A stretch of 64,000 nt of DNA. Source: Steroidobacter agaridevorans. Lineage in GTDB: Bacteria; Pseudomonadota; Gammaproteobacteria; Steroidobacterales; Steroidobacteraceae. Where the stretch lies: positions 219,648-283,647 of the forward strand of contig NZ_BLJO01000006.1 of the NCBI RefSeq assembly GCF_009932555.1, given 5' to 3'. The position numbers and the translations under genes were made by a program. Below are positions 49,271 through 56,137 of this stretch, in pieces. Numbering within the stretch: the first letter of the stretch is position 1; every line of letters starts with the position of its first letter. The notes under the pieces are model-generated. The model was not told the DNA's origin, searched no databases, and saw only the letters and a list, made by a program, of their open reading frames with translations.

Positions 49271-50470
49271 TCAGAAGCAGAAGTACGACCCGATCAGGGT
49301 CTTCAGCGTGGTGTGATTCCAGCTTTCGGCCGTGTGAGCGACCGCAAAGGCCTGGATCGAGTGACAGCCGCCGTCGTTGTAGGGCAGCGTGAAGCTCCAC
49401 TGAGACACACTGATGCCGTATTGATTGGCGATGTCGCCGCGGTATCCGTTGGGCACGGTGGTGCCCCAGTAGCCGCCGTCCACATAGATGTCGACGTATG
49501 GGGGAATCACAGCGGTTCTATCCACGGCCCAGCCAGTGACCAGACCGCTGGCAGGATCGAGCGACTCGATGAAGCCGGCCATGGTGTTGTAGCCCTGATT
49601 ATTGAACTGGGCTTGCCAGGTTTGGAGGATGGGCGCGGCGGTCGGATGGGTAATGCCGTGCCAGAACTCACCCGGAATCACCTCCAGCTCGTCCCAACCA
49701 AAGAAGCCCGCGACCAACCACACCATGGGAGCGTCCCACCCCTGCGCGTTGAGGCTGTTGGCATAGTTGAAGTAACCCGCCAGCCACGACGCGGGCGTGG
49801 AGGGATTCTGGTAGCTGGGTGAGTTGCGATGGAACGTCCCCGGCACCAACGCCAGTTGCTGGCTGTTCTTGGAGCGATGCGAGACGATCCAGTTGTAATA
49901 CGGCTGCACCGTGCTGAAAGGCACCATGTACTTATCGAGCGATATGACGTCGATATAGGAACGGTTGAAAATGCAGGACGCCTGCATCCAGGTCATCTCG
50001 GGCTCACTGAAGTTCACCCAGAAGCGCGTCGCCGGCGCGATGCTCTTGACCGCGGCAGCCGCGTTCTGGAGATAAGTCTCCGTCGCCCAGATGGCATTGA
50101 TGCGCGGGTCGCCAGGCGCACATGGGTTCTCCCAGTTCGTGGCGCCGGTCGCAAACCAGTACGGCTCGTCGATCACTACGGCCGCAACACGCGACCAGTC
50201 ATAGCCGAGACTGGCGAGGTATCCAGCCAGATTGGGATTTTGATAGACCCCATCGAGACTCATGATGGCGCGCCCGGCGGGTTGCGATTGGCCCGCCGAA
50301 AACCATGCCAGATCGGTATAGCCGGGATTGCTGTTACCAAACAGCGCCATTTCGAAACGTCTTATCGCGGCGCTTGCATCGACCGATAGCGCCATGCTGA
50401 TGACACAGCAGCCAGCAATCAAAATCCTGCGCGCAACTCTGTCCCACAATCTCGCATTCCATGCTTTCAT
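49271..50470 (-). CDS. Secreted barrel-like protein with C-terminal beta module
   Basis: The protein has 399 residues. A signal peptide lies at about 15-35 (ILIAGCCVISMALSVDASAA). Residues 40-285 look like an alpha/beta barrel of glycoside-hydrolase type: VAAVVIDEPYWF, FWVNFSEPEMTWMQ, IDVISLDKYMVPF and APMVWLVAGFFGWDELEV, with Glu residues at strand ends that could be catalytic. Residues about 300-399 form a separate beta domain (GFIESLDPASGLVTGWAVDR, VDIYVDGGYWGT, WSFTLPYNDGGCHSIQAFA) with paired Cys. I cannot name the family. It is the last gene in line with the Rhs operon, 31 bases after the small membrane gene, with GGAG before its ATG. Confidence 0.65.
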   Translation of the reverse strand: MKAWNARLWDRVARRILIAGCCVISMALSVDASAAIRRFEMALFGNSNPGYTDLAWFSAGQSQPAGRAIMSLDGVYQNPNLAGYLASLGYDWSRVAAVVIDEPYWFATGATNWENPCAPGDPRINAIWATETYLQNAAAAVKSIAPATRFWVNFSEPEMTWMQASCIFNRSYIDVISLDKYMVPFSTVQPYYNWIVSHRSKNSQQLALVPGTFHRNSPSYQNPSTPASWLAGYFNYANSLNAQGWDAPMVWLVAGFFGWDELEVIPGEFWHGITHPTAAPILQTWQAQFNNQGYNTMAGFIESLDPASGLVTGWAVDRTAVIPPYVDIYVDGGYWGTTVPNGYRGDIANQYGISVSQWSFTLPYNDGGCHSIQAFAVAHTAESWNHTTLKTLIGSYFCF

Positions 50471-50501: not shown

Positions 50502-50840
50502 CTAGTAGACCAACGAATCGGCGCTGGGCCGGCTTCGGCGCCACCCCGTCCATGCAGCCAACGCGAGACACGCAGCGCCTAACAACAACAGCAACATTCT
50601 GCTGTCCTCGTCATCAGCAAAGACCATCCATTCCGTGTTCACCCAGAGAGGAAAGAAGATCGCAAAGGGCACCACCAGGGCAATGAAAACCAGGAACCAT
50701 GCGTACGTCAGTGCGTTGCGAGTCACGGAACCGAGCGCGTTACGACGCAGCTTGGCGGCCACCAGGAAATAGCCACGCACGCCGAGATAGCAAGCGTACG
50801 CATACAGAAGAATCACAAAGGCAAAACCGATGATCTTCAT
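50502..50840 (-). CDS. Three-helix membrane protein, candidate Rhs immunity protein
   Basis: The protein has 112 residues with helices at about 3-25, 44-67 and 82-100 and a short charged tail. No family is recognised. Its ATG overlaps the stop of the Rhs gene by four bases (ATGA), so it is translated together with it. In Rhs and other polymorphic toxin loci, the gene directly downstream of the toxin normally encodes the immunity protein, and membrane-embedded immunity proteins usually guard against toxins acting on the inner membrane. This function is inferred from position, coupling and topology. The coding sequence has normal GC content for the region. Confidence 0.6.
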   Translation of the reverse strand: MKIIGFAFVILLYAYACYLGVRGYFLVAAKLRRNALGSVTRNALTYAWFLVFIALVVPFAIFFPLWVNTEWMVFADDEDSRMLLLLLGAACLALAAWTGWRRSRPSADSLVY

Positions 50841-53800
50841 CTGGTTGGCACCGGCTTCCTCATTTCTTCGATGGTCTTTTTCGCCATGTCGTCGATGGCT
50901 GGTGCAGCGCTCTCGGCAACTCCGATGACCGCGCCTTCAACGACTGTACCTGCCGCCACACCAGCGGTGGTGGGTGTCCCCGCAAGCTCGAGAGATTGCC
51001 CAATGACACCGCGTGTAGTCATCGAAGCAATGCCTTTGCCGACGACTCCTCCCACTCCGGCGCCCAGCGCCCCGGCAGCGGTGGTGGTCGCGCTGACCTT
51101 CACGTCGGAAAGCTCCACATTCTCCAGTCCCTTCTCCATGGCCGCCGTCGTAGTCGAGCCCAGAGCCTGGCCAGCGGCACTGGCAACTGCGCCGGCCGCG
51201 GCCATTCCGACAAAGTGAGCGGTGTGGGGCGCAACCAGCCCAACGAGACCACCCGCCGCCGCTCCTGCCAGAGTGCCAACGAGCTTCTCTTTGAAACCAC
51301 CACCAGCGGCAACGAAGCCTCCCATGGCTCCCGCTAGTGCCCCGTAGGCCGCGCCTACCACACCGAATTCCCCGCTGGGATCGTTCTGGTTCAGCGGATC
51401 GTTTTTCACGTACGCATACAGATTGGTGCCATCTTCATAGCCCACCGGATCCGTTTGCAGGAACCTGCCCAGCCCGGGATCGTAGACACGAGCCTTATAG
51501 TGATACAACTGCACCTCGGGCAGCGCCGCCTGGCCGGTGAATTTGAAGCGCGAGCCACTCCATCTGTTGGGCTCGCCATAGGCGGAGTACGAATATGCGG
51601 AGCCGACCAGCTCGCCCGCGCCATCGCTCGCACCGATGATCGAGCCCTGGTGATTCGAATGCAGCCAACGCCGCGTTTCGCTGGAAAGAGCGGCGCCCTC
51701 GTACCAGACCAGAAATTCGTCGACTCCCGCGCCGGGCACGTAGCGACGCAAGGTCGTCGCCGATGAGCCGTTGAACTCCGCTACCAACTGATCGCCGGCG
51801 TACAGAAACTGAGTCGTCGCACTGCCGACGGTCTGCCGCAATCGACCGAGCGGATCGTAAGACAAGGAAAGGAGGGTTGTTGAGCCACTGCCGTTGGTGA
51901 CGGAAGTCAACCGGTTCAGCAAATCGTATTGGAACGTGCGCGCGCCATTGCCCGTCAGATTGCCTCGGGCATCGTAACCGAAGCTGGTGCCATCGACGGA
52001 TGAGTAACGATTGAGCCCGTCAGGAATGTAGGGACGGTTGAGAACCGTGCCGGGCGCATAACTGTAAACGTCATTCGATAACGTGCGCGTCGCGATCTGA
52101 TTCGCCGGATTGTGCGTGAAGCCCACCGATAGATCTTGGGCACCGCCCGAAAGATTCTGCGTCAGGCCCGACAGCCGCGAAGCTCCGTCGTAGTCGTTGT
52201 CGGTGACCGTCTGGTTGCCACGGCTCAACAGGTCGCGGCGACCCAAAACATCGTACGAGTAATCCGCCAGCAAGCCGGGCCCGCTGGCAACACCATTCTC
52301 CTGCACTAGATCCATACGATTCATAGAGTCATAGGTGTACTTGATGAACTGGCCATCCGGCCAGGTGAGCCGGGTGCGATTGCCAGCCTCGTCGTAGCGA
52401 TAGGACAGCACGCGTCCATACGCTGTCTCGGTCTCGACCCTGCCCCACGCGTCGTAGGTGTACACCACGCCGGAGCCACCGATAGTCTGGTAGGTGGCCG
52501 ACAGCTTCCTGCTCAGCAAGTCATAGGTGGAGTGCACATCGAGCGCCGTACCCGGCAGATCCCGCAGTTTCTCGCGATTCAGCGCATCGTATTCGTAGAT
52601 GATGGTTTCGCCGCTGCGCAGCCGCAGGCTGCGGCGATTATTGTTCTCATCGTAGCCGTACTGCTCGTAGTCCGATGGATTCTCCGCATGCTGCCCCACC
52701 GCCACCTGCGGAAACTCCATGTACGCAAGTCGATCGAAGCCGTCGTAGTTCAGGTCGGTGCGGTTGCCATTCGCGTCTTCCATCCAGTCCCGCTTGCCAT
52801 TGGGCGTGTAGCCATACGACGCGTAATTCTGCTGTAGCGAAGTGCCGAGACCGTGCTGAATCGCAGTGACCTCTCCCGCCGCGTTGTAAACGTTGCGCGT
52901 AATCCGGTCGTAACCATACTGCCCGGCTTGGGAAAGCGTGCATGCGCCAGGCAATGAGGCATAGACATTCGGATTCATCCGCACTGCCGTGCACGTTCGA
53001 CGCGCGGCGCCATCGTAGGCGAACTGCGTCACGCCGCTCGGCGACGTCTCTCGAATGAGATTGCCGCCGCCGTCATAGTTCCTGCTCACCACCTCGTAGG
53101 CGGTGAACACGTTGGAGGGACTCATGACGCCACGGGAGATACTCTCGATATACCCCTCGGGCGTGTACAGCTGCCGTGTAGTGGACGCATCCGCACCGAT
53201 CTCATAGTTCTGCCGGCGGCGCAGGTCCCAAACAGTCTTCGTGATGTCAGCAACGTCGGTGCGCGGCCCGTCGATTTCGTCTCGATTGCCGACCTCGTCG
53301 TAGTCATAGCCGGTCGTCGCCGAGACCCCGCCCTTCGCGATCGTTACGGTGCGCAGCAGCCGATTGTTGCCGACGTTCGACGGACCGTAGCCCATCGTGG
53401 TCACGATTTGAGCACTGGCCGCACACGACGATGCGGTCTCGCATTCCACCGAGCTGGTGCGCTTGAGCAGAGCCGGAGTCGCGGCGGCCATCTGACCGGC
53501 GGCGTTGTAAAAGTACGCGTTCAGAGCCGTGTAGCCGTAGCTCGTGAACGGACAGAGATTCGACCCGAAGTAGCACGTCAGATTATTGTCGGGCCCCTGC
53601 AATCCGCGCTCTGTACTGAGCAGAACGCCGGTCGTGGGATTCCACTCGTTGCGAGTGACGTAGCCACGAGCATCTCGAATGCGAATTGCCTTGTTGCAAT
53701 ACGCGGCCTGGGAACACAGCGGCGTGTCTCCCTCACCGCGAGTGATGGTTGTGATCTGATCGGCCAGCCCCGAACCCTGTTTGGCAAAGCGCCGTATCTG

Positions 53801-55090
53801 GGTAATGTTTGCTCGTTGATCGTAGGTGTACTGCTCGCCGTTGCCTTCTGGATAGGTGATCTTGGAGAGCTGTGGATTCAAGTGACCGACGTGTTCGAGC
53901 CTGGTAAGGCGACCGAGCTCATCGCGGATTGCTGCGATCCTCGCGGCCGGTCCATAAATCTCACCGAACGCCGTACCCGCCACCGGGGCGACGTCGGTGG
54001 TGTAACCAACGCTCCCGGCGGCGCTCGTGACCCTGACACCGTGCTGGATCAGACCGGGATTCGTGAGACTGGTATCCCACTGATACGTCCACGTGCGCCC
54101 GTCTATGACGACGTTCTGCACGCGAAAGCCGCCGATGCGATTACCTCCGGCGAGGCAGCTGCTACTGGACGGCGGCGTCAATGGGCCGCAGTCCTGATAG
54201 GTGATGTCAATGTCTTTGGCACCAGGCCCGTCGACGTGCGTGACCCGATCGCCACCGTTGCCGAATACGCGCGTGTAAACAGTCGTCGAGTTGTCGGTTT
54301 CCGTGATGGATACCGTCCCGGACGCGAATTGAAAGGAGAGCCTGGGCCAGGTGCGACTGAAGGCCGGGCAAGAGGCAGCGTCGGGATTGCATGCATCCAC
54401 GGCCATGTTGAACAGCACCACCGAGCTGACCGGCGCCAGCACGCCGTTCACGGGTTCTGCGAAATTGAAGCGCAGCTGATATCCGTGGTTATTCGTAATG
54501 GAACGGATCGTCGCAGTGTTTGGGACGTAGTGAAAGTCCAAGCGCTCTCCGTTGGGCTTTTGCGCCGACAGCACACGCAAGATGTAGCTGTTGCTATTGA
54601 CGCTCCAAGCGACCCCGAGGGGCGTGCTGTCGAATGTGAGTTGTGTCCCGTCCGACAACACGGCAGTCGCACACCAGTCGCCGCAAAAGCTCAGTCGCGA
54701 TCCCAGATCGCCGAAATAGTTCACGCCATCGCCCAGCAAGAGCTCGGTCTTGCCCTGAAAGCGCAGCGTATAGTTATAGGCGACGGAGCCGGTGTCCGGA
54801 TCCGTCGAGACATCCAGGCGCATGAAAGCGAGCACGCTGTGATACATGAGCCACTGGCCTGGCGAGGAATGACTGAATGAGTAGCTCAGCCCTCCGTTCT
54901 CCGGATCGCCGATGGAGATCGAGTGGGCGACGACGAACGTGCGCTCCGCCAGATCGACGCCGCGCTCGTCGACTACCGAGAAATTCTTGGGTTTGAATTC
55001 CTGATCGATGGCTTGTCCGGCAGCCGTGCCGTTAATGAGACCCAGCAGGGCAAACACGAGGCTCGTGGTCGCAGCTCGCAAACGATTCAT
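50837..55090 (-). CDS. Rhs/YD-repeat protein, putative polymorphic toxin
   Basis: The protein has about 1,417 residues. A Sec signal (MNRLRAATTSLVFALLGLIN, GTAAG) precedes a beta-rich N-terminal region of about 380 residues. A long series of YD repeats follows (for example YDEVGNRDEIDG, YDALNREKLRDL, YDEAGNRTRLTW) up to the Rhs core end RVYDPGLGRFLQTDPVGYED, GTNLYAYVKNDPLNQNDPSG. After the core lies a variable tip of about 170 residues, rich in Gly, Ala and Val (GALAGAMGGFVAAGGG, AAAGGLVGLVAPHTAHFVGM), the place where Rhs toxins carry their effector. This tip has no nuclease motif and looks membrane-active. GGGGGA precedes the ATG at 55090. Confidence 0.9.
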   Translation of the reverse strand: MNRLRAATTSLVFALLGLINGTAAGQAIDQEFKPKNFSVVDERGVDLAERTFVVAHSISIGDPENGGLSYSFSHSSPGQWLMYHSVLAFMRLDVSTDPDTGSVAYNYTLRFQGKTELLLGDGVNYFGDLGSRLSFCGDWCATAVLSDGTQLTFDSTPLGVAWSVNSNSYILRVLSAQKPNGERLDFHYVPNTATIRSITNNHGYQLRFNFAEPVNGVLAPVSSVVLFNMAVDACNPDAASCPAFSRTWPRLSFQFASGTVSITETDNSTTVYTRVFGNGGDRVTHVDGPGAKDIDITYQDCGPLTPPSSSSCLAGGNRIGGFRVQNVVIDGRTWTYQWDTSLTNPGLIQHGVRVTSAAGSVGYTTDVAPVAGTAFGEIYGPAARIAAIRDELGRLTRLEHVGHLNPQLSKITYPEGNGEQYTYDQRANITQIRRFAKQGSGLADQITTITRGEGDTPLCSQAAYCNKAIRIRDARGYVTRNEWNPTTGVLLSTERGLQGPDNNLTCYFGSNLCPFTSYGYTALNAYFYNAAGQMAAATPALLKRTSSVECETASSCAASAQIVTTMGYGPSNVGNNRLLRTVTIAKGGVSATTGYDYDEVGNRDEIDGPRTDVADITKTVWDLRRRQNYEIGADASTTRQLYTPEGYIESISRGVMSPSNVFTAYEVVSRNYDGGGNLIRETSPSGVTQFAYDGAARRTCTAVRMNPNVYASLPGACTLSQAGQYGYDRITRNVYNAAGEVTAIQHGLGTSLQQNYASYGYTPNGKRDWMEDANGNRTDLNYDGFDRLAYMEFPQVAVGQHAENPSDYEQYGYDENNNRRSLRLRSGETIIYEYDALNREKLRDLPGTALDVHSTYDLLSRKLSATYQTIGGSGVVYTYDAWGRVETETAYGRVLSYRYDEAGNRTRLTWPDGQFIKYTYDSMNRMDLVQENGVASGPGLLADYSYDVLGRRDLLSRGNQTVTDNDYDGASRLSGLTQNLSGGAQDLSVGFTHNPANQIATRTLSNDVYSYAPGTVLNRPYIPDGLNRYSSVDGTSFGYDARGNLTGNGARTFQYDLLNRLTSVTNGSGSTTLLSLSYDPLGRLRQTVGSATTQFLYAGDQLVAEFNGSSATTLRRYVPGAGVDEFLVWYEGAALSSETRRWLHSNHQGSIIGASDGAGELVGSAYSYSAYGEPNRWSGSRFKFTGQAALPEVQLYHYKARVYDPGLGRFLQTDPVGYEDGTNLYAYVKNDPLNQNDPSGEFGVVGAAYGALAGAMGGFVAAGGGFKEKLVGTLAGAAAGGLVGLVAPHTAHFVGMAAAGAVASAAGQALGSTTTAAMEKGLENVELSDVKVSATTTAAGALGAGVGGVVGKGIASMTTRGVIGQSLELAGTPTTAGVAAGTVVEGAVIGVAESAAPAIDDMAKKTIEEMRKPVPTR

Positions 55091-55157
55091 TCGATCCCCC
55101 AACCGTCCTAGTCGACCGAGATGATTTCAGTGACGCGTGTCGTGACGACTGACGCTG

Positions 55158-55688
55158 CTATTCCAATAGCAAATTCAGAACCGCCGGCAGCCAGGCAAGA
55201 TTCTGCACTCTGATCTGATACGTGGCGCTCGCCGGAGCGTGCACACTGTCTCCGGAATAACTCGCGGTGATCGTGTGGAGGCCTTGCGGGTAGTCCTCCA
55301 GAATGATGGTCGCCTGGCCATTGATGACTGCTGCCGAACCCAAGAACACGCCACCTTCGGTGAAGGTCACCGTGCCGACCGCGGAAGCGCTGCCCACGTT
55401 GACGATGAGTGTTACGCCAACGCCGGTGGCATTTGCCACGCTGCTGGGCGGACTGACACTGACAGGTGTTGATCCGGTAGGACGAGTGGAGCTGTGCTGT
55501 GTGCGATTGCCGGCCGGGTCGAGCTGATAACTTACGGTCGAACCGTCTGCCGGACCGCCCGCCGTTTGCACCGTGTTGAGCCTGCCCAACGAATCGTATG
55601 TGTATGTCGCGGTCTCCGCCGCGTGACCGCTTGCCGCGATCAACAGCAGAAACAGACTCATCCCTCGCCGCAGTGGATTCGTTAGCAT
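55158..55688 (-). CDS. Secreted mini-Rhs/Ig-like protein
   Basis: The protein has about 176 residues. A signal peptide (to about 23, GHAAE) is followed by one or two YD-type repeats (YTYDSLGRLNTVQTAGG, VSYQLDPAGNRTQHSST) and a bacterial Ig-like domain of the Big_3_5 type (VGTVTFTEGGVFLGSAAVIN, LHTITASYSGDSVHAPASAT). It lies 67 bases upstream of the Rhs gene on the same strand and may be cotranscribed with it. It has the look of a remnant or decoy of an Rhs N-terminus, or of a short accessory surface protein. GGAG lies six bases before the ATG at 55688. Confidence 0.75.
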   Translation of the reverse strand: MLTNPLRRGMSLFLLLIAASGHAAETATYTYDSLGRLNTVQTAGGPADGSTVSYQLDPAGNRTQHSSTRPTGSTPVSVSPPSSVANATGVGVTLIVNVGSASAVGTVTFTEGGVFLGSAAVINGQATIILEDYPQGLHTITASYSGDSVHAPASATYQIRVQNLAWLPAVLNLLLE

Positions 55689-56137
55689 CCCCATCTCCGT
55701 GCCATAGATCGCGGATGTGCTCGGACGACGCGCGCGTACGCGACCACGAGCTCATCGTCATCTGAGCTCGCAAGGGAAAGGCAAACGTTCAACTCTTCCC
55801 TGATACCGAGGCTTGTCTTTGTTCGATCAGATCCATCTGGTGATTAGTACGAGTAAATTGCGACGAGCCACCATAATTTGTCAACACCGCGCTCGCATCG
55901 ATCGAACAGATTCAGGGTTTCTCCTCATTCCAGACATTTGCAATGTCGCGTGCGCGTTTCCAGAACTCCAAATATATCTTTCCTATCGTTCACGGGGATC
56001 GCGGACGCGCTTGACAGACAGCGGTTGTCACTGCAACTCTTCGGCTCCACAGAACTGCCAGGGATGGTGATGAACTGTCGAGTCGTACCATCCCGCCAGC
56101 CGAACGACTCCTTAGAAAACTCAGCAAGGATCCGGCC
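55689..56137. other. Intergenic region between the Rhs cluster and small secreted genes
   Basis: The 449 bases hold no gene I can support and are more AT-rich than the flanks. A TTGACA at 56011-56016 is the left arm of TGACA-N9-TGTCA (56012-56030) and could be a -35 for the plus-strand pair at 56138, but no fitting -10 is seen. The minus-strand promoter of the Rhs cluster must also lie here. Nothing repeated or transposon-like is visible. Confidence 0.4.

What the first reader, a model, noticed from the sequence alone, without database searches (positions are those of the whole stretch)
50502..55090. Secreted Rhs protein with a membrane-like toxin tip and a coupled three-helix candidate immunity gene
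After the Rhs core end the variable tip of about 170 residues is Gly/Ala/Val-rich with several hydrophobic stretches and no nuclease motif. The next gene overlaps by four bases and encodes a three-helix membrane protein. Membrane toxin plus membrane immunity protein is a coherent pair. The Rhs protein has a Sec signal instead of a PAAR/VgrG-type N-terminus, so delivery would differ from type VI systems.
Basis: partly seen in the sequence, partly recalled or inferred. Interest (0 to 1): 0.68.

Follow-up and report, generated by a model that had tools for sequence, protein, structure and literature searches.

The report
Secreted Rhs protein, likely membrane-toxin pair
A bacterium carries a large exported shell protein whose swappable end looks like a membrane-disrupting weapon, directly followed by a small membrane protein that probably protects the owner; both halves are of known kinds, but this toxin end has no close known relative.

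Summary
A 1,417-residue Rhs protein (50837-55090, minus strand) has a Sec-type N-terminus, a core ending in DPxGx19DPxG, and a 177-residue tip, 41% Gly+Ala, nearly free of catalytic-type residues. A 112-residue three-helix membrane protein starts on an ATGA overlap. Relatives share the body, and similarity stops at the core end in 18 of 20. No close relative of tip or small gene was found; one distant tip candidate is L237. In an exploratory sample, Gly/Ala-rich tips were followed by small polytopic membrane proteins in 6/9 cases against 26/112. An unchanged repeat gave 4/4 against 25/91, p 0.007. Where a further part follows the Gly/Ala-rich stretch it is 1/12 (post hoc). The genome lacks matches to two T6SS sheath families but has a type II secretin. 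Best reading: a Sec-exported, probably T2SS-secreted Rhs bacteriocin with a Tse5-like membrane-depolarising tip and a membrane immunity protein. Closest precedents: Tse5/Tsi5, EsxX, CDI ionophores; for export, Bcn-A. Toxicity and immunity are untested. New variant of a known kind.

The parts
50837..55090 (-). Rhs protein gene, 1417 aa (ATG at 55090; an in-frame TTG lies 12 bases upstream at 55102)
55010..55090 (-). Sec-type signal peptide, about residues 1-27 (read by eye, no signal-peptide program was run)
   Evidence: sequence; hydrophobic stretch 10-28, KD 1.51; similar N-termini in seven relatives
51590..55009 (-). Rhs/YD-repeat shell
   Evidence: PF05593 six stretches; YD-like motifs from residue 520 on; solved Rhs shells match by sequence over its later part and the core
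51371..51589 (-). Rhs-associated core, residues 1168-1240, ending in DPxGx19DPxG (residues 1214-1240), the presumed aspartyl self-cleavage site
   Evidence: TIGR03696 E 2.1e-22; motif; same spacing reported for Tse5
50840..51370 (-). variable tip, residues 1241-1417, Gly/Ala/Val-rich, glycine-zipper-like, candidate membrane toxin
   Evidence: five helices predicted at low confidence, pLDDT 52
50502..50840 (-). small three-helix membrane protein, 112 aa, candidate immunity protein
   Evidence: three helices at pLDDT 69; charge pattern
50837..50840 (-). ATGA overlap of the Rhs stop and the small-gene start (translational coupling inferred)
55158..55694 (-). upstream gene: secreted 178-aa protein with YD repeats and a Big_3_5 Ig-like domain; similar sequence precedes three related Rhs genes, so possibly part of the module
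   Evidence: tblastn matches in L015, L032 and L036

Best explanation
This is a polymorphic Rhs toxin-immunity locus. The Rhs protein is exported by Sec (N-terminus read from the sequence), folds outside the cytoplasm into a YD shell around its own C-terminal tip, and frees the tip by the aspartyl core protease at DPxGx19DPxG (inferred from Tse5 and Tc toxins). It probably leaves the cell by the type II system (inferred). In a target cell the 177-residue Gly/Ala-rich tip inserts into the inner membrane as packed helices and dissipates the membrane potential (inferred). The overlapping, probably co-translated 112-residue protein sits in the inner membrane, by charge pattern with an acidic periplasmic loop, and blocks the tip when it arrives from the periplasm (inferred). 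No cytoplasmic antidote would be needed if export is unfolded and the shell forms outside.
For: Architecture and 4-base overlap. Body shared with relatives and tips replaced: similarity ends at residues 1240-1248 in 18 of 20 loci; among 21 same-body tips only L016, L023 and L027 resemble each other at E <= 1e-3, and only the window's has G+A >= 0.35. Tip lowest of 231 in catalytic-type residues, 4th in G+A and in hydropathy, GxxxG enriched. Linkage of Gly/Ala-rich tips to small polytopic next genes: 6/9 against 26/112 in the exploratory order sample, p 0.010, and 5/8 without the window, p 0.027; unchanged repeat 4/4 against 25/91, p 0.0075; pooled without the window 9/12 against 51/203, p 0.0007. 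Tips up to 220 aa that are Gly/Ala-rich over the whole tip: 10/12; longer tips with a Gly/Ala-rich first 150 residues and a further part: 1/12; p 0.0006, a split made after the look. Sec-type N-terminus, no TssB or TssC match, GspD present.
Against: No experiment. Hydrophobicity of the tip is modest and not more clustered than shuffles. The tip has no relative of known activity. Its scores with the other Gly/Ala-rich tips are weak (z up to 4.6 against full shuffles; mostly 0.1-2.9 against shuffles that keep local composition, best L256 at 4.7), and a profile from five of them did not list it among its best matches. In one search its highest scores were with L130 (z 8.1), L040 (6.9) and L160 (5.1), none of which has a small polytopic next gene by the rule; L130 and L160 are long tips in which a further part follows. 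Under the local control L130 and L160 fall to 1.8 and 1.9, while L040 stays at 4.4 over 38 residues. The best match of 232 under that control, L237 (z 5.9, 32% over 111 residues, BLASTP E 0.052 for the one comparison), shows no coupled small gene in the 57 bases left on its contig. Polytopic next genes also follow a quarter of all other tips (51/203), so one such neighbour alone is weak evidence. Counting TM segments in the tip instead of G+A gave no separation (15/49 against 17/72). Type II secretion is inferred only from the presence of the secretin.
Confidence: 0.6

Rival explanations
1. The Gly/Ala-rich tip is only the translocation or linker segment that many Rhs proteins carry before an enzyme, and the enzyme has been lost; the small gene is an unrelated or left-over membrane protein.
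For: Longer Rhs tips in the sample do carry Gly/Ala-rich stretches before a further part: 12 of 49 tips over 220 aa. The window tip scored highest against one of these (L130, z 8.1 with full shuffles), although this falls to 1.8 when local composition is kept. L237, the best distant match, shows no coupled membrane gene in the 57 bases held after it. A glycine zipper serves translocation in Tde1 (PMC10240207, seen only as a search listing with the start of its abstract).
Against: No room for a lost domain: the next gene starts on the stop codon. Five loci in four genomes (L091, L105 and L084 of one array, L265, L268) have Gly/Ala-rich tips of 173-182 residues that end at, or within 11 bases of, a small two-segment membrane gene, which looks like a complete architecture. 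The two classes differ in their next gene, 10/12 against 1/12; a second of those 12 (L160) has a three-segment next gene of 241 aa, over the length limit.
Confidence: 0.19
2. The tip acts in the cytoplasm or on a membrane protein by binding, without forming a pore, and the small membrane protein blocks entry or masks the receptor.
For: Membrane immunity proteins may also act at the uptake step: for Imm-CdiI and Imm17, with two TM helices, prevention of uptake was suggested (PMC3482391, passages).
Against: Very few polar or catalytic-type residues and high Gly/Ala content favour membrane packing.
Confidence: 0.14
3. The Rhs protein is not antibacterial but a surface or host-interaction protein; the tip anchors it in a membrane, as proposed for the post-core helices of mosquito SGS1.
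For: Tip and core end give a sequence match to SGS4 and SGS1 running about 60-75 residues past the core. SGS1 carries predicted TM helices inside its Rhs shell (PMC9935623, passages).
Against: The past-core part of the match looks like Gly/Ala composition. The tip differs in the 20 relatives compared, as expected of a toxin and not of a fixed anchor.
Confidence: 0.07

Closest known systems
Tse5 / Tsi5, Pseudomonas aeruginosa (PMC9637101, PMC10684867; passages seen)
   Same: Rhs shell, DPxGx19DPxG core, C-terminal tip with predicted membrane helices and no enzyme signature, small polytopic inner-membrane immunity protein
   Different: Tse5 has an N-terminal domain predicted to fold like PAAR and is a T6SS effector; here a Sec-type N-terminus and no T6SS sheath match. 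The tip's only PDB match is at E 2.4 to an unrelated chain. Tsi5 has two predicted TM regions, here three.
Bcn-A, Xanthomonas perforans (PMC7259588; passages and section 18 seen)
   Same: 1,398-aa Rhs-family bacteriocin found in supernatants; activity lost in a T2SS secretin mutant; immunity protein predicted in the inner membrane; accessory genes in the locus
   Different: The passages do not show its tip to be a pore former; its accessory ORFs are numbered between toxin and immunity gene, whereas here the immunity candidate overlaps the toxin. No sequence comparison was made.
CDI ionophore toxins and CdiI (PMC11630599; passages seen)
   Same: Predicted five-helix membrane domains, putative glycine zipper, small very hydrophobic and highly polymorphic immunity proteins (72-100 residues)
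   Different: CdiA carrier and a separate entry domain; immunity proteins are predicted two-helix hairpins
EsxX, with TelE and TspA, type VII glycine-zipper toxins (PMC12744356; passages seen)
   Same: Glycine-zipper membrane-depolarising C-terminus (196 residues in EsxX); membrane immunity proteins
   Different: Type VII export (LXG carrier in EsxX) in Gram-positive bacteria, no Rhs shell; EsxX also needs a cytoplasmic immunity pair
WapA of Streptococcus suis (PMC12704120; passages seen)
   Same: Rhs protein exported by Sec with polymorphic C-terminal toxins and immunity genes
   Different: Wall-anchored in a Gram-positive; helper SecF-like protein and sortase

Membership tests
Rhs polymorphic toxins | YD/Rhs repeats and Rhs-associated core | tested here: met
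   PF05593 E 2.3e-18, TIGR03696 E 2.1e-22
Rhs polymorphic toxins | Conserved body with tip replaced among relatives | tested here: met
   Similarity ends at 1240-1248 in 18 of 20 loci, at 1291 and 1301 in the others; of 21 same-body tips only three resemble each other at E <= 1e-3
Rhs polymorphic toxins | Immunity gene directly downstream that neutralises the tip | tested here: inconclusive
   Gene present on an ATGA overlap; neutralisation not testable here
T6SS Rhs effectors | PAAR/VgrG-type N-terminus and T6SS in the genome | tested here: not met
   Sec-type N-terminus; no Pfam N-terminal effector domain; no TssB or TssC match in a genome 97% complete, while control E. coli matches
T2SS-exported Rhs bacteriocins (Bcn-A type) | Sec signal plus dependence on the type II secretin | tested here: inconclusive
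   Signal-like N-terminus and GspD over its cut-off; dependence not testable here
Glycine-zipper / pore-forming toxins (works like) | Helical GxxxG-rich membrane-inserting domain | tested here: inconclusive
   11 GxxxG against 5.8 in shuffles, p 0.012; helices at low confidence; insertion not tested
Tse5-CT family | Sequence relation to Tse5-CT | not tested
   Tse5 in the PDB matched only at the core; the Tse5-CT sequence itself was not compared

The most novel reading that the evidence does not exclude
Sec/T2SS-exported Rhs proteins include a class of shell-carried, injection-free pore-forming bacteriocins: a short, wholly Gly/Ala-rich Rhs tip is a self-contained membrane toxin whose immunity gene encodes a small polytopic membrane protein, while the same kind of segment before an enzyme is only a translocator. 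The window locus would be a three-helix-immunity member with an orphan tip.
Probability: 0.35. Interest if true: 0.6.

Novelty: new variant of a known kind. Interest (0 to 1): 0.45.

Why it matters
Among the papers seen here, Tse5, which is injected by a T6SS, is the only Rhs tip shown to form pores. A Sec-exported Rhs with a membrane-type tip, in a genome without T6SS sheath matches, raises the question of how a shell-carried pore former reaches a Gram-negative inner membrane without injection. The survey also suggests a simple rule (short, wholly Gly/Ala-rich tip goes with a small polytopic neighbour; Gly/Ala-rich segment plus a further part does not) that could separate tips that are the toxin from tips in which such a segment is only a vehicle.

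Tried and rejected
Relatives of the tip: 3 of 148 genomes including its own; the other two matches are short glycine-zipper stretches in what I read as OmpA-like lipoproteins, rejected. Pattern scan of the species collection: 75 stretches, none confirmed; this scan needs exact peptide patterns and finds close relatives only. Plasmids and phages: none. Relatives of the small gene: 1 of 148, its own; 4 of 369 in the class sample, of which the other three lie inside open frames of 444-565 residues at E 6e-4 to 1e-3 and were not pursued; pattern scan 94 stretches, none confirmed; plasmids none. The tip of L091 gave 0 of 369 genomes and no plasmid; that of L237 no plasmid. PADLOC: nothing.

A first tip extraction by motif missed 49 of 145 loci and was replaced by one anchored on the TIGR03696 match. 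Family names for ten tips of same-body relatives gave almost nothing, so tip variability rests on sequence difference, not on named toxins. Cuts that did not separate polytopic from other next genes in the order sample: TM >= 1, 15/49 against 17/72, p 0.41; TM >= 2, 6/12 against 26/109, p 0.08; G+A >= 0.30, 10/27 against 22/94, p 0.21; G+A >= 0.30 with TM >= 1, 7/17 against 25/104, p 0.15. In the class sample TM >= 2 gave 4/6 against 25/89, p 0.07. Fold searches were not run because the tip model is poor (pLDDT 52). Two of nine relatives (L016, L018) gave no readable start. The high score of the window tip with L130 was set aside as mostly a composition effect after a local-shuffle control.

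Because of L130 and L237 I lowered the best explanation from 0.62 to 0.60 and raised the linker rival from 0.17 to 0.19.

Full report
What is there. On the minus strand the window carries, in order, a 178-residue YD/Ig protein (55158-55694), a 1,417-residue Rhs protein (50837-55090), a 112-residue membrane protein (50502-50840) and a 399-residue protein of no known family (49271-50470); all but the membrane protein begin with a signal-like stretch by eye. The Rhs stop and the next start overlap as ATGA. The Rhs protein carries RHS repeats (PF05593) and ends its core with DPxGx19DPxG at residues 1214-1240. The same spacing is reported for Tse5 (PMC10684867, passages).

The tip. Residues 1241-1417 are 22% Ala, 19% Gly and 12% Val. 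Among 231 Rhs tips gathered here, itself included, it is lowest in residues of catalytic type (6.8% against a median of 27%), 4th in hydropathy and 4th in Gly+Ala. GxxxG pairs exceed shuffles (11 against 5.8, p 0.012), but hydrophobic clustering does not (p 0.60). No Pfam or NCBIfam family beyond the Rhs ones matches. AlphaFold2 without an alignment gives five helices at low confidence (pLDDT 52). The small protein gives three helices at pLDDT 69. Its first loop carries five K/R and no acid, its second loop five acids and one base, and its C-terminus three bases and one acid. By the positive-inside rule (recalled) this puts loop 2 in the periplasm.

The locus is polymorphic. The body (residues 1-1240) has relatives at E <= 1e-20 in 18 of 118 genomes, its own included, at 30-59% identity. 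Searched with the whole protein, similarity stops at residues 1240-1248 in 18 of 20 loci, the other two running to 1291 and 1301. Of the 21 same-body tips only L016, L023 and L027 resemble each other at E <= 1e-3, and none but the window's reaches G+A 0.35. Most have no family name. No close relative of the window tip or small gene was found: the tip in none of 147 other genomes apart from two matches I take as compositional, the small gene in none of 147 and convincingly in none of the class sample; neither in the species pattern scans, which see close relatives only, nor in plasmids; the tip not in phages.

A distant candidate. In a control that keeps local composition, the best of 232 tips against the window tip is L237, from another family of the class: z 5.9, 32% identity over 111 residues, same lay-out from the first residue after the core. 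BLASTP alone gives E 0.052 for that one comparison. L237 is 153 residues long and its contig ends 57 bases after the stop. No coupled small gene is visible in those 57 bases, which I read as an intergenic repeat. It therefore neither confirms nor excludes the pairing, and counts slightly against it.

Test of the pairing. From 296 genomes of the order, 139 Rhs core ends (of 150 listed; the list was cut) gave 137 distinct tips, 121 usable (closed, 40-450 aa, with a next open frame). A next gene of at most 200 aa with two or more hydrophobic segments followed 6 of 9 tips with G+A of at least 0.35 and 26 of 112 others (p 0.010). Without the window it is 5/8 (p 0.027). The threshold was chosen after looking, and other cuts on the same sample were null: TM >= 1 15/49 against 17/72; G+A >= 0.30 10/27 against 22/94. 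I wrote the rule down and repeated it unchanged on a class-level sample with no shared tips. There 95 tips were usable, with 4/4 against 25/91, p 0.0075; pooled without the window 9/12 against 51/203, p 0.0007. A later, post hoc split is informative. Gly/Ala-rich tips up to 220 aa have such a neighbour in 10 of 12 cases. Longer tips whose first 150 residues are Gly/Ala-rich but which go on have it in 1 of 12 (p 0.0006), against 9 of 37 other long tips. One more of those 12, L160, has a three-segment next gene of 241 aa, over the limit. Caveats: numbers are small; L105 and L084 come from one array in one genome; L091, L105, L084 and L265 are mostly related to each other (pairwise z 4.7-7.3, but 2.0 for L105 with L265), so these are not ten independent events. 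The next genes of the ten loci compared show no mutual similarity (all z below 3).

Is the window tip homologous to these paired tips? Not shown. Against full shuffles it scores 0.8-4.1 with nine of them counted one way and up to 4.6 the other way (L080 near zero); against local shuffles most fall to 0.1-2.9, with L256 at 4.7. A profile from five of them did not list it among its best matches. In one search its top scores were with L130, L040 and L160, which lack a small polytopic neighbour by the rule; L130 and L160 are long tips in which a further part follows, and their scores drop to 1.8 and 1.9 under the local control, while L040 keeps 4.4 over 38 residues. I therefore claim the same kind of tip, not common descent.

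Delivery. The genome (97% complete) shows no TssB or TssC match, while the control E. coli does, and has a GspD over its cut-off. Signal-like N-termini are readable by eye in seven of nine related Rhs proteins as well as in the window. Sequence similar to the upstream YD/Ig gene precedes three related Rhs genes (L015 55%, L032 54%, L036 40% over 63 residues); most other loci held do not reach upstream of the gene. In Xanthomonas perforans the Rhs-family bacteriocin Bcn-A is found in supernatants, loses activity in a T2SS secretin mutant, and has an immunity protein predicted in the inner membrane (PMC7259588, passages and one section). That is the nearest precedent for export. How such a protein crosses the target's outer membrane is unknown here.

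Mechanism. Tse5-CT depolarises cells and forms ion-selective pores, is toxic from the cytoplasm and from the periplasm, and is countered by a membrane protein with two predicted TM regions (PMC9637101, passages; PMC10684867, passages). Type VII glycine-zipper toxins and CDI ionophores follow the same logic with other carriers (PMC12744356; PMC11630599; passages). SGS1 shows that predicted membrane helices can be stored inside an Rhs shell (PMC9935623, passages). The window fits this scheme with a Sec/T2SS-type carrier. Shown: anatomy, polymorphism, absence of a known enzyme family, statistical pairing in small samples, lack of T6SS sheath matches. Inferred: self-cleavage, secretion route, membrane insertion, depolarisation, immunity.

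Novelty. The parts are of known kinds. The tip has no close relative in what was searched, and the combination of a Sec-exported Rhs, a wholly Gly/Ala-rich tip and an overlapping three-helix membrane immunity candidate did not turn up in the paper searches made (open-licence papers only; listings and passages seen). New variant of a known kind.

Noticed in passing
window 55158-55694 (-): 178-aa protein with signal-like start, YD repeats and a Big_3_5 Ig domain upstream of the Rhs gene; similar sequence precedes Rhs genes in L015, L032 and (short, 40%) L036, so it may be a conserved partner of this secreted Rhs type.
   Followed up: partly
window 49271-50470 (-): 399-aa protein with signal-like start and no Pfam or NCBIfam match, 31 bases after the small membrane gene; no tblastn match in the other same-body loci within the flanks held.
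   Followed up: no
G099:C29:347565-363148 (L082, L084, L090, L093, L105, L112, L114): Seven Rhs core ends with different tips within 16 kb, two of them Gly/Ala-rich with small two-segment membrane genes on a 4-base overlap: looks like a tandem array of tip cassettes.
   Followed up: partly
L080, L095, L068: Gly-rich Rhs tips that to my eye look beta-like rather than helical (alternating Gly/Ser/Val), also followed by small proteins with 2-4 hydrophobic segments; possibly a second, barrel-type membrane tip.
   Followed up: no
L073 (G000:C5:164270-167109): A further Rhs locus in the same genome whose next gene (98 aa, gap -1) also has three hydrophobic segments although its tip is rich in Cys and Gly, not Gly/Ala-rich by the rule; no similarity to the window's small gene at the cut-offs used.
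   Followed up: partly
L029 (G107:C401): Related Rhs body with a polar 222-aa tip, yet an 82-aa three-segment membrane protein on a 4-base overlap: a polytopic next gene does not by itself imply a membrane tip.
   Followed up: no
L237 (G377:C258): 153-aa Rhs tip with the best local-control similarity to the window tip (32% over 111 residues); contig ends 57 bases after its stop in what I read as an intergenic repeat.
   Followed up: partly
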